Assembly (NCBI GenBank): GCA_903828245.1 | Contig: CAIKLP010000025.1 | Span: forward strand, 1-49,719 | Length of the DNA stretch: 49,719 nt | Source of the DNA: an uncultured bacterium | GTDB lineage: Bacteria; Bacteroidota; Bacteroidia; Sphingobacteriales; Sphingobacteriaceae | Direction of reading: 5' to 3' | Shown here: positions 21,595 to 24,338 of the stretch, piece after piece | How positions within the stretch are numbered: position 1 is the first letter of the stretch | Layout: each line of letters starts with the position of its first letter | Program-made: the position numbers and the translations under genes | The notes under the pieces: generated by a model | Databases searched by the model: none | What the model was told of the DNA's origin: nothing | Seen by the model: only the letters and a program-made list of their open reading frames with translations

Positions 21595-21846
21595 TTAGCA
21601 AGCAACAATCGTAAATTCATAGCTTTCCATAATAAGGTTGGCTAATAAGTTTTTACAGGCTTGATCTACTAGTTCTTTTGCCTCTGCTTCAGATTCTGCA
21701 GTAATTTCAAGGCTAATGTGTTTACCAATTCTTACATTTTGAATAGTAGTTAAGCCTAGGTTTTTCATGCTACTGCTCACTGCTTTTCCTTGTGGGTCTA
21801 AGATTTCTTTCTTAGGCATTACATTTATTTCTGCTTGAAATTTCAT
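21595..21846 (-). CDS. purS: Phosphoribosylformylglycinamidine synthase subunit PurS
   Basis: PurS is the small scaffold subunit that lets PurQ and PurL work as FGAM synthase in purine synthesis. The 83-aa protein has the family pattern: VMPKKEILDPQGKAVSSSMKNLG, VRIGKHISLEI, then LVDQACKNLLANLIMESYEF. Length is typical. purQ and purL are not nearby. The protein ends the minus-strand run rho-pssA-purS, with an 18-nt gap after pssA, so it probably shares the rho transcript. Confidence 0.92.
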   Translation of the reverse strand: MKFQAEINVMPKKEILDPQGKAVSSSMKNLGLTTIQNVRIGKHISLEITAESEAEAKELVDQACKNLLANLIMESYEFTIVAC

Positions 21847-21864: not shown

Positions 21865-22563
21865 TTAGCTAATAATTTTCTTTTTTGACACCATTGATAA
21901 TAGGAGATAACATATAATGATCAATGGAATGGCCACAAATTTAAGAATTACAAATAGGATTATTGATATGCCTATTAATATAAATTTTTCGAGGTTTTGA
22001 TTCCAATCAAAATTCTTGAACTTCAAGGAGATAAGTGGAATTTCTGCCACCATAAAAAAACTCATAAGTACAATTAGGCTTATTAAAAATGCTGGACTGT
22101 TAACAAATGTGTTGCTAATGGCTGGATGAGCTAATACAAAAGGGATACTCATAAAAAACAAAGTATTGGCCGGAGTTGGAAGCCCTACAAAATAAGTACT
22201 TTGACGGGTATCATTATTAAATTTTGCTAACCTTAAAGCAGAAAATACCGGTATAATAAAAGCGGCATAAGCCAAATAGCTAGGTAATTGCTGTGCTAAT
22301 AATAAATCGTTTAATACAATGTACATGATTGCACCAGGCGCAAAACCAAAACTAACCATATCGGCTAAAGAATCGAGGTCTTTTCCTATTACAGAATAAG
22401 CATTTAAAGCTCTTGCCGCAAGGCCATCAAAAAAATCGAATAGGGCACTGAGTGCTAATAAATATACCGTTATTTCTATTTGATGTTGGAAGGCAAAAAC
22501 AATAGCAATACAGCCAGCTAATAAATTCAAACACGTAATAAAATTAGGAATATGCTGCTTCAT
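21865..22563 (-). CDS. pssA: CDP-diacylglycerol-serine O-phosphatidyltransferase
   Basis: An inner-membrane enzyme that makes phosphatidylserine, the precursor of phosphatidylethanolamine. The 232-aa protein has several hydrophobic helices and the full CDP-alcohol phosphotransferase motif, with Asp43, Asp46, Gly47, Ala50, Arg51, Gly60, Asp64 and Asp68 in place. This is the membrane-embedded PssA type of Gram-positive and Bacteroidota species, not the E. coli phospholipase-D-like type. It follows rho by 6 nt, which indicates one transcript. Confidence 0.93.
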   Translation of the reverse strand: MKQHIPNFITCLNLLAGCIAIVFAFQHQIEITVYLLALSALFDFFDGLAARALNAYSVIGKDLDSLADMVSFGFAPGAIMYIVLNDLLLAQQLPSYLAYAAFIIPVFSALRLAKFNNDTRQSTYFVGLPTPANTLFFMSIPFVLAHPAISNTFVNSPAFLISLIVLMSFFMVAEIPLISLKFKNFDWNQNLEKFILIGISIILFVILKFVAIPLIIICYLLLSMVSKKKIIS

Positions 22564-22569
22564 GTTTGA

Positions 22570-24228
22570 TTAGCTATTCATCGAAATTAAAAACTCTTCA
22601 TTCGATTTTGTACCACGCATTTGTTTTTGTAAAAACTCCATGGCTTCTACTGGATTCATATCTGATAAATGATTTCTTAAAATCCATGCGCGTTGTAGCA
22701 CATCCTTATCTAATAATAAATCGTCGCGACGGGTAGAAGAAGCATTGATATCTATGGCAGGGAATACACGCTTATTAGCTAGTTTTCTATCTAATTGTAA
22801 TTCCATATTACCCGTTCCCTTAAATTCTTCGAAAATTACTTCGTCCATTTTTGAGCCGGTATCTGTAAGAGCTGTTGCAATAATGGTTAAAGAACCACCA
22901 TGTTCAATTTTACGTGCGGCACCAAAAAACCTTTTTGGTTTATGTAATGCATTGGCATCTACACCACCCGATAAAATTTTACCCGATGCCGGCGCTACGG
23001 TATTATATGCCCTAGCCAAACGGGTAATAGAGTCTAATAGAATTACCACATCATGACCACTTTCTACCATTCGTTTTGCTTTTTCTAAAACGATATTGGC
23101 AATTTTAACATGTCTTTCTGCGGGTTCATCAAAAGTAGAGCTTACTACTTCGGCACGCACGCTGCGGGCCATATCGGTTACCTCTTCTGGTCTTTCGTCT
23201 ATTAATAAAATAATTAAATATACTTCGGGATGATTTGCTGCTATGGCATTGGCTACATCTTTTAATAAAACAGTTTTACCTGTTTTAGGTTGCGCCACAA
23301 TTAATCCTCTTTGCCCTTTTCCAATTGGAGAAAATAGGTCCATTAAACGAGTCGAATAATTTCCAGGATCCGAAAATAAATTGAATTTTTCGAAAGGAAA
23401 CAATGGCGTTAAATAGTCGAAAGGCACACGGTCTCTCACTTCTGCGGGTGTACGGCCATTAATACTATCCACTTTTACTAATGGAAAATATTTCTCTCCT
23501 TCTTTAGGTGGACGAATACTACCTCTAACGGTATCTCCAGTTTTTAAACCAAATAATTTTATTTGTGATTGTGATACATAAATATCGTCTGGAGAAGTTA
23601 AATAATTATAATCTGCCGATCTTAAAAAGCCATATCCATCGGGCATAATTTCTAATACCCCTTCGTTTACAATAGAATTATCAAAATCCAAGGTTTGTAA
23701 AGTGGATTCTGTATTATTTCTTTGTTTATTATTATGGCGATCAAATCGGTTATCGTTATTTCTTTGTGGACGCTCCACTGCCGATTTTTCTAAATTGGCA
23801 GAGGTTTGACTATCGTCTTCTTGGTGTGTATTTTGTGGCGCTTGTACCGGTGTTTCGATATTTTCCGAAACGCTTTCGGATTCGTTAGCATTATTTTCAA
23901 TCACCGAAGCATCGTTGCCTGTATCTTGATTGGCATCGGTAGCTTTCTGTTTTTGTTTGGCAAGCATTGGATTTGATTTTAGAGCGGCTGCCGGTTCGGA
24001 AGTAGGCGATTCATCTTGTTCAGATTTTACACTTCTTTTTCTTTTCGTTTTTTCTGCAGGTGCCGATGCTGTTTCGGCTGCTACTGTTTTTTTGTTTGGG
24101 TTCGATTCCAATATGTGATAGATTAATTCTTGTTTTCTTAATTCTTCGTAACCTGTTATGGCTAAATCTTTTGCAATTTCTCTTAATTCTGAAACTAATT
24201 TTTCGTTTAACGAGCTATTATCGTACAT
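22570..24228 (-). CDS. rho: Transcription termination factor Rho with long disordered insert
   Basis: Rho is a hexameric RNA helicase that ends transcription. The 552-aa protein starts with a Rho N-terminal helical domain (about 8-45). A charged, Asn/Gln/Ser-rich insert of about 135 residues follows (45-180), then the RNA-binding cold-shock-like domain (about 187-260, [16 protein letters not shown]). The ATPase core has the P-loop QPKTGKTV at 313-320, [13 protein letters not shown] and the Q/R loops ([11 protein letters not shown]). The insert is typical of Bacteroidota Rho and may aid RNA binding or phase separation. The leader is described separately. pssA and purS follow closely. Confidence 0.97.
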
Positions 24229-24294
24229 GTATTGTGTTTAAATTTTTATTGGGGAGAATTTATAAAGGTGGGGATGATTGAAAGAGGTGTTAGA
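24229..24294 (-). promoter_or_regulatory. G-free, C-rich rho mRNA leader (rut-like)
   Basis: The 66 nt before the rho ATG contain no G and 21 C in the mRNA sense (no C and 21 G on the plus strand). Low structure and an excess of C over G define Rho-utilisation sites. Placed directly before the rho gene, this suggests that Rho binds its own leader and limits its own synthesis. The base counts are read directly; the function is inferred. Confidence 0.6.
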
Positions 24295-24303
24295 CATTAA
24301 CAC
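24287..24303 (-). promoter_or_regulatory. Hairpin at the 5' end of the rho leader
   Basis: GTGTTA and TAACAC form a perfect 6-bp stem with a 5-nt loop. The predicted start site (about 24303) coincides with its outer edge, so the rho mRNA would begin with a hairpin and continue into the G-free stretch. Confidence 0.45.
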
Positions 24304-24307
24304 ATTG

Positions 24308-24338
24308 CAATTTTAACCATTTTAATTAAATAATCAAA
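24308..24338 (-). promoter_or_regulatory. Promoter of rho
   Basis: On the minus strand TTTG (24335-24338), a 19-nt spacer and TAAAATTG (24308-24315) match the Bacteroidota consensus at all but one fixed base. The start site would be near 24303, giving a leader of about 75 nt. Confidence 0.6.

What the first reader, a model, noticed from the sequence alone, without database searches (positions are those of the whole stretch)
24229..24294. rho leader is G-free and C-rich: a likely self-targeting Rho site
Seen directly: in the mRNA sense the 66 nt before the rho ATG have 21 C and no G, while the first bases beyond include G again. Rho-utilisation sites are defined by C over G and lack of structure (known for E. 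coli and B. subtilis Rho), and E. coli rho is autoregulated by premature termination in its leader. Inference: this Bacteroidota rho is controlled the same way by a purpose-built leader. A promoter at 24308-24338 gives a leader of about 75 nt, almost all of it this stretch.
Basis: partly seen in the sequence, partly recalled or inferred. Interest (0 to 1): 0.66.

Follow-up and report, generated by a model that had tools for sequence, protein, structure and literature searches.

The report
C-rich, G-free rho mRNA leader
The messenger RNA for the termination factor Rho starts with a stretch made to Rho's own taste (much C, no G, no folding), and a milder form of this is found before the rho gene in almost every family of its bacterial class, so these bacteria probably use Rho to switch off its own gene, as E. 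coli and Bacillus do.

Summary
Among 108 comparable leaders sampled from the same genome it is the extreme (C minus G = +21; next +11). The same bias, milder, runs through the class. With roughly one genome per family, rho leaders average C-G = +10 per 100 nt and 98% are positive, while recA, rpoD and dnaK leaders average +0.6 to +2.2 (p about 2e-9). Where a Bacteroidota-type promoter is recognisable, the bias begins at the predicted transcript start: C>G in 92% of leaders downstream, but in only 30% of the segments upstream. Rho leaders are C-rich and G-poor, carry more YC steps and fold less. Start-codon-proximal translation effects explain only the last 20-30 nt. The best reading is a Rho-utilisation site for autogenous attenuation, as known in E. 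coli and B. subtilis but, in the open literature searched, not reported for Bacteroidota. The exact window sequence is conserved only among near relatives; a sister species keeps promoter and 5' hairpin but a weaker bias. No RNA or protein experiment could be run. The case is a new member of a known kind, with unusually clear comparative support.

The parts
24308..24338 (-). candidate rho promoter, TTTG-N19-TAAAATTG (Bacteroidota type: TTTG near -33, TAnnTTTG at -7)
   Evidence: 9/10 consensus positions; both elements kept in the same-genus genomes inspected, and as TTTG-N19-TATAATTG in another genus, L086; predicted TSS about 24302
24287..24303 (-). perfect inverted repeat GTGTTA-ATGTC-TAACAC at the predicted 5' end of the mRNA (6-bp hairpin, -4.3 kcal/mol, or a DNA operator)
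   Evidence: only exact copy in the genome; 1-mismatch copies no more frequent than the reversed-pattern control; kept in all same-genus genomes and as GTGTTAA-TATTC-TTAACAC in L086; fold
24229..24294 (-). G-free, C-rich leader (C21 G0): predicted Rho-utilisation (rut) site
   Evidence: unstructured (MFE 0 for 24229-24286), 15 YC steps in the 75 nt from the inverted repeat
24251..24294 (-). C-rich core of the leader (18 C in 44 nt), ahead of the ribosome landing zone
   Evidence: read from the sequence; class-wide the C maximum also lies 30-60 nt before the ATG
24229..24250 (-). A-rich start-codon-proximal segment AATAAAAATTTAAACACAATAC (3 C in 22 nt): probable ribosome landing zone without Shine-Dalgarno sequence
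   Evidence: read from the sequence; Bacteroidota initiation favours A-rich unstructured sequence (PMC6847099)
24238..24297 (-). possible 19-codon upstream ORF (MSNTSFNHPHLYKFSPIKI) spanning the C-rich core; status doubtful
   Evidence: read from the sequence; its stop is not kept in near relatives (an extra A shifts the 3' end in L083, L084, L136, L137), it ends early in L085 and its ATG is absent in L086
22570..24228 (-). rho, 552 aa, with a long N-terminal insertion between the N-terminal helices and the RNA-binding domain
   Evidence: NCBIfam PRK09376/TIGR00767 above cut-off; 63% identical to E. coli Rho over 370 aa, RNA-binding domain included

Best explanation
The leader of the rho mRNA is a Rho-utilisation site by which Rho limits its own synthesis. 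The transcript starts near 24302 with a small hairpin and then exposes about 44 nt of C-rich, G-free, unfolded RNA followed by an A-rich ribosome landing zone. When free Rho is plentiful it loads on this RNA before translation is established, runs 5' to 3', and releases RNA polymerase in the first part of the rho coding sequence. When free Rho is scarce, ribosomes take over the start site and full-length rho mRNA is made. Shown here: the composition, the predicted lack of structure, its restriction to the predicted transcribed leader, and its recurrence upstream of rho across the class. Inferred: Rho binding, termination, and negative feedback.
For: (1) Window leader C21 G0, extreme among sampled leaders of its genome. 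(2) Class-wide, about one genome per family: C-G per 100 nt +10.1 (n=43, 98% positive) against recA +0.6, rpoD +2.1, dnaK +2.2, pooled p = 2e-9. (3) A second set, 73 named rho loci against 182 neighbouring genes: +7.9 against +2.4, p = 4e-10; the skew fades beyond -130. (4) Promoters are recognised upstream of 43 of 73 rho genes (6.1 expected), giving leaders mostly of 90-180 nt. In 50 rho genes with such a promoter C/G is 0.188/0.112 downstream of the predicted start (C>G in 92%) but 0.139/0.173 upstream of the promoter (30%), so the bias belongs to the RNA; rpoD leaders defined the same way show none (0.142/0.149). (5) At -60..-30 C is enriched (0.226 against 0.167, p = 1e-4) as well as G depleted (0.095 against 0.179, p = 2e-7). 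(6) Rho leaders fold less than controls and have more YC steps (11.3 against 6.7-8.1 per 100 nt). (7) A rut site is described as single-stranded, ribosome-free, C-rich, low-G RNA of about 60-80 nt, and rho is attenuated at its own leader in E. coli and other bacteria (PMC6582626); C>G bias extends to B. subtilis Rut sites (PMC12350095). (8) The 66 nt before E. coli rho, a leader known to be autoregulated, have C20 G7. (9) The RNA-binding domain is well conserved with E. coli Rho.
Against: The exact sequence turns over quickly: L085 keeps promoter, hairpin and about the first 12 nt after it, but has C11 G3 in 66 nt. The B. subtilis study found no combination of descriptors that reliably separates Rut from Rut-less sequence (PMC12350095), so composition alone is not proof. 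At 74 nt the window leader is near the minimum for a rut site, so termination would have to fall inside the translated coding region. Transcript starts are predicted, not mapped. In many genomes of the window's own family the bias is weak or absent. P values treat genomes as independent.
Confidence: 0.7

Rival explanations
1. The leader is G-free to keep the ribosome-binding region unfolded and well translated (possibly bS1-bound); Rho has nothing to do with it.
For: Bacteroidota lack Shine-Dalgarno sequences and tune initiation by low structure and A-rich sequence around the start codon (PMC6847099). Control genes also lose G in the last 30 nt.
Against: The low-structure zone there is -20 to +20, whereas the rho bias runs to about -130 and includes C enrichment at -60..-30. 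recA, rpoD, dnaK and promoter-defined rpoD leaders lack it. The window's A-rich segment covers only the last 22 nt.
Confidence: 0.13
2. Rho binds the leader but represses translation or alters mRNA decay rather than terminating transcription.
For: The predicted leader is short (74 nt) and the C-rich core lies directly upstream of the ribosome landing zone, so bound Rho would compete with the ribosome.
Against: The described autoregulation in E. coli and other bacteria is transcription attenuation (PMC6582626); no precedent for translational control by Rho was found in the papers read.
Confidence: 0.07
3. The composition in the window is drift or a lineage-specific accident in an AT-rich genome.
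For: The 66-nt sequence itself is conserved only among near relatives.
Against: Chance of about 7e-8 for this composition; a similar, milder bias in nearly all families of the class; the skew flips at the predicted transcript start, which a regional replication-strand bias would not do.
Confidence: 0.05
4. The main control element is the inverted repeat GTGTTA-N5-TAACAC, as a repressor operator or 5'-stabilising hairpin, and the C-rich stretch is incidental.
For: It sits at the predicted transcript start, both arms are unchanged in another genus while the loop differs, and it is better conserved than the C-rich stretch.
Against: No other exact copy in the genome, so no regulon; rho leaders class-wide show no excess of inverted repeats over shuffles, while the C>G bias is class-wide. 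The two elements are not exclusive.
Confidence: 0.05

Closest known systems
E. coli rho leader with rhoL (autogenous Rho-dependent attenuation)
   Same: C over G upstream of the start codon (C20 G7 in 66 nt); gene encodes Rho
   Different: E. coli has about 330 nt between trxA and rho with an annotated leader peptide; here the predicted leader is 74 nt, has no G after the first hairpin and no conserved leader peptide
B. subtilis rho leader (autogenous attenuation; Ingham 1999 as cited in PMC12350095)
   Same: Rho-dependent attenuation of rho in a distant phylum; Rut sites biased C>G and U>G and poorly structured
   Different: no sequence relation tested; Rut peaks in B. subtilis rho were seen with E. 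coli Rho but not with the cognate Rho
Bacteroides thetaiotaomicron Rho with disordered insertion and condensates (PMC13269538)
   Same: Same phylum; the window Rho also carries a long N-terminal insertion
   Different: That work concerns protein-level control; a text search of it found no mention of rut, autoregulation or rho mRNA

Membership tests
Rho-utilisation (rut) site | C-rich, low-G RNA of about 60-80 nt (PMC6582626) | tested here: met
   C21 G0 in 66 nt, 68-nt G-free run
Rho-utilisation (rut) site | single-stranded, without stable structure | tested here: met
   MFE 0 for 24229-24286; only the 5' 17 nt can pair; prediction only
Rho-utilisation (rut) site | spaced YC steps for the Rho primary site | tested here: met
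   15 YC steps, spread over most of the core; class average 11.3 per 100 nt against 6.7-8.1 in controls
Rho-utilisation (rut) site | free of ribosomes | tested here: inconclusive
   A 19-codon uORF covers the core but is not conserved; translation not measurable here
Rho-utilisation (rut) site | binds and activates Rho | not testable with these tools
   needs cognate Rho in vitro
Autogenous Rho-dependent attenuation of rho | rut-like leader upstream of an intact rho gene | tested here: met
   552-aa Rho equivalog directly downstream
Autogenous Rho-dependent attenuation of rho | the stretch is transcribed | tested here: inconclusive
   conserved Bacteroidota-type promoter upstream at 24308-24338; no RNA-seq of this genome
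Autogenous Rho-dependent attenuation of rho | feature kept in related rho genes | tested here: met
   98% of class leaders C>G in 100 nt, rho-specific against three control genes; other classes of the phylum 12 of 13, without control genes
Autogenous Rho-dependent attenuation of rho | Rho level changes premature termination of rho mRNA | not testable with these tools
   needs Rho depletion or bicyclomycin RNA-seq
Leader-peptide (uORF) attenuator | conserved upstream ORF | tested here: not met
   uORF end differs among near relatives and its ATG is lost in L086

The most novel reading that the evidence does not exclude
Autogenous attenuation of rho by a composition-only RNA element, with no conserved sequence or structure and under selection for C over G along the whole leader, is a general feature of Bacteroidota. 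In the window's genus it has been compressed into a near-minimal leader of about 74 nt with a 5' hairpin and a separate ribosome landing zone.
Probability: 0.55. Interest if true: 0.6.

Novelty: new member of a known kind. Interest (0 to 1): 0.5.

Why it matters
Rho is essential in gram-negative species, and in Bacteroides its activity is tuned by condensates (PMC13269538), yet how Bacteroidota set the amount of Rho was not described in the papers found. A leader whose C-over-G bias starts at the predicted transcript start in nearly every family suggests that feedback control of Rho is older and more general than the two model bacteria show. It also gives a ready natural substrate for testing what Bacteroidota Rho recognises, a question for which no rut data from this phylum were found.

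Tried and rejected
Rfam search of the window found only a tRNA. An E. coli-type sigma-70 promoter and terminator scan gave only chance-level hits. The inverted repeat was tested as a regulon operator and rejected, as it has a single exact copy in the genome. A class-wide leader hairpin was tested and rejected: inverted repeats are no longer than in shuffles for rho. An upstream ORF was considered and set aside because its reading frame is not kept. Regional or replication-strand skew was rejected because the skew flips at the predicted transcript start. Misplaced start codons as a source of background bias were checked with recA, rpoD and dnaK, whose starts were set by N-terminal motifs or by position relative to the Walker motif. 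A first version of the control-gene script failed and was rewritten. Literature searches for Rho autoregulation in Bacteroidota found none, but the library is open-access only.

Full report
Observation. On the minus strand, 24229-24294 holds 66 nt with 21 C and no G directly before the rho ATG. The G-free run is 68 nt long. The downstream ORF (22570-24228, 552 aa) is a Rho equivalog, 63% identical to E. coli Rho over 370 aa. Given local intergenic base frequencies, such a 66-mer has probability near 7e-8. Of 108 genes with enough upstream sequence in a 288-kb sample of the same genome, this leader is first by C minus G (+21; second +11; median +1). Long G-free runs do occur elsewhere, but the two C-rich ones that were checked are antisense to coding sequence.

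Anatomy. The consensus (TTTG near -33, TAnnTTTG at -7) is taken from PMC7366714. Both elements are kept in same-genus genomes and in another genus, L086. The predicted RNA begins with the inverted repeat GTGTTA-ATGTC-TAACAC (24303-24287), folds there weakly (-4.3 kcal/mol) and is otherwise unfolded. After it come a C-rich core of 44 nt with 18 C (24294-24251, the first bases shared with the repeat) and an A-rich 22-nt segment before the ATG.

Near relatives. Of the same-genus genomes, L083 and L084 keep C21 G0, L136 has the same leader as L083, and L137 has one G. The more distant L085 (Rho 90% identical) keeps promoter, inverted repeat and about 12 further nt, then differs: C11 G3 in 66 nt, C21 G6 over a predicted 106 nt. 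L086 (79%) has C14 G3 over a predicted 57 nt. So composition, not sequence, is what persists.

Class-wide test. Rho leaders were collected from a draw of 60 genomes, about one per family, with recA, rpoD and dnaK from the same draw as controls. In 100 nt, rho leaders average C 19.5, G 9.4, C-G +10.1, 98% positive (n=43); controls average +0.6, +2.1 and +2.2 (pooled p = 2e-9). In a second set of 73 named loci against 182 neighbouring genes with at least 200 nt upstream, C-G per 100 nt is +7.9 against +2.4 (p = 4e-10), and the skew disappears beyond -130. Between -60 and -30, C is raised and G lowered relative to controls. Rho leaders also have weaker predicted folding and more YC steps. Ten further rho genes from the class are all positive, and 12 of 13 from other classes of the phylum are positive in 100 nt; the latter have no control genes and less certain start codons.

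Link to transcription. Strong promoter matches occur upstream of 43 of 73 named rho genes against 6.1 expected in block-shuffled sequence, mostly predicting leaders of 90-180 nt; rpoD matches mostly predict 30-60 nt. In 50 rho genes with such a promoter, C/G is 0.188/0.112 downstream of the predicted start and 0.139/0.173 upstream of the promoter. Promoter-defined rpoD leaders show 0.142/0.149. Promoter-defined leaders of 27 neighbouring genes show a small bias (0.151/0.129; rho larger, p = 0.004). The bias therefore belongs to the rho RNA, not to the region or replication strand. From general knowledge, cytosine deamination on the non-template strand would lower C there, the opposite of what is seen.

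Mechanism. A rut site is described as single-stranded, ribosome-free, C-rich and low-G RNA of about 60-80 nt, and rho is attenuated in its own leader in E. coli and other bacteria (PMC6582626). C>G bias extends to B. subtilis Rut sites (PMC12350095). In B. subtilis, excess C plus T-richness explains 56% of the variability of Rho termination in a reporter library (PMC13323073). The 66 nt before E. coli rho have C20 G7, close to the window. The simplest explanation is autogenous attenuation: Rho loads on the leader and ends transcription early in rho when Rho is in excess. Loading, termination and feedback are inferred, not shown.

Rivals. Translation tuning explains G-poverty only near the start codon (-20 to +20 in F. 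johnsoniae, PMC6847099) and not C enrichment further up. The inverted repeat may add transcriptional or stability control in this lineage, but it is unique in the genome and rho leaders class-wide show no excess of inverted repeats. The upstream ORF is not conserved.

Verdict. It extends a known regulatory principle to a phylum for which no report was found in the open literature searched.

Noticed in passing
window 24287-24303 (minus strand); L083, L084, L085, L086, L136, L137: Perfect inverted repeat GTGTTA-N5-TAACAC at the predicted rho transcript start, arms unchanged across the genus and in another genus while the loop differs; no other exact copy in the genome.
   Followed up: partly
window 24238-24297 (minus strand): A 19-codon ORF whose ATG would lie in the loop of that hairpin and which spans the C-rich core; its end is not kept in relatives.
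   Followed up: partly
L014, L019, L020, L091, L092, L099, L100, L105 and others (Mucilaginibacter and relatives), last about 30 nt before rho ATG: A conserved block like AAAATCCYTTTGAACTATAATTCATATC abuts the rho start codon in several genera of the family; shorter versions with AAAATCC about 25-30 nt before the ATG occur in others. Function unknown.
   Followed up: no
L014, L020, L092, L099, L100, L105, about 50-80 nt before rho ATG: Mucilaginibacter rho upstreams share CCTGG(G) about 15 nt before CAGG(G), around a possible -7 element: a candidate operator-like inverted repeat.
   Followed up: no
window 21865-22563 and 21595-21846 (minus strand): Two ORFs follow rho closely on the same strand: a 232-aa membrane protein that looks like a CDP-alcohol phosphatidyltransferase and an 83-aa protein that looks like PurS; if co-transcribed, control of rho would affect them too. 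Identities judged by eye, not searched.
   Followed up: no
whole genomes of other classes of the phylum (for example G160, G185, G200): Several carry a second, shorter Rho-like protein about 44-50% identical to the window Rho besides the main one; possibly the NCBIfam short-form Rho2.
   Followed up: no
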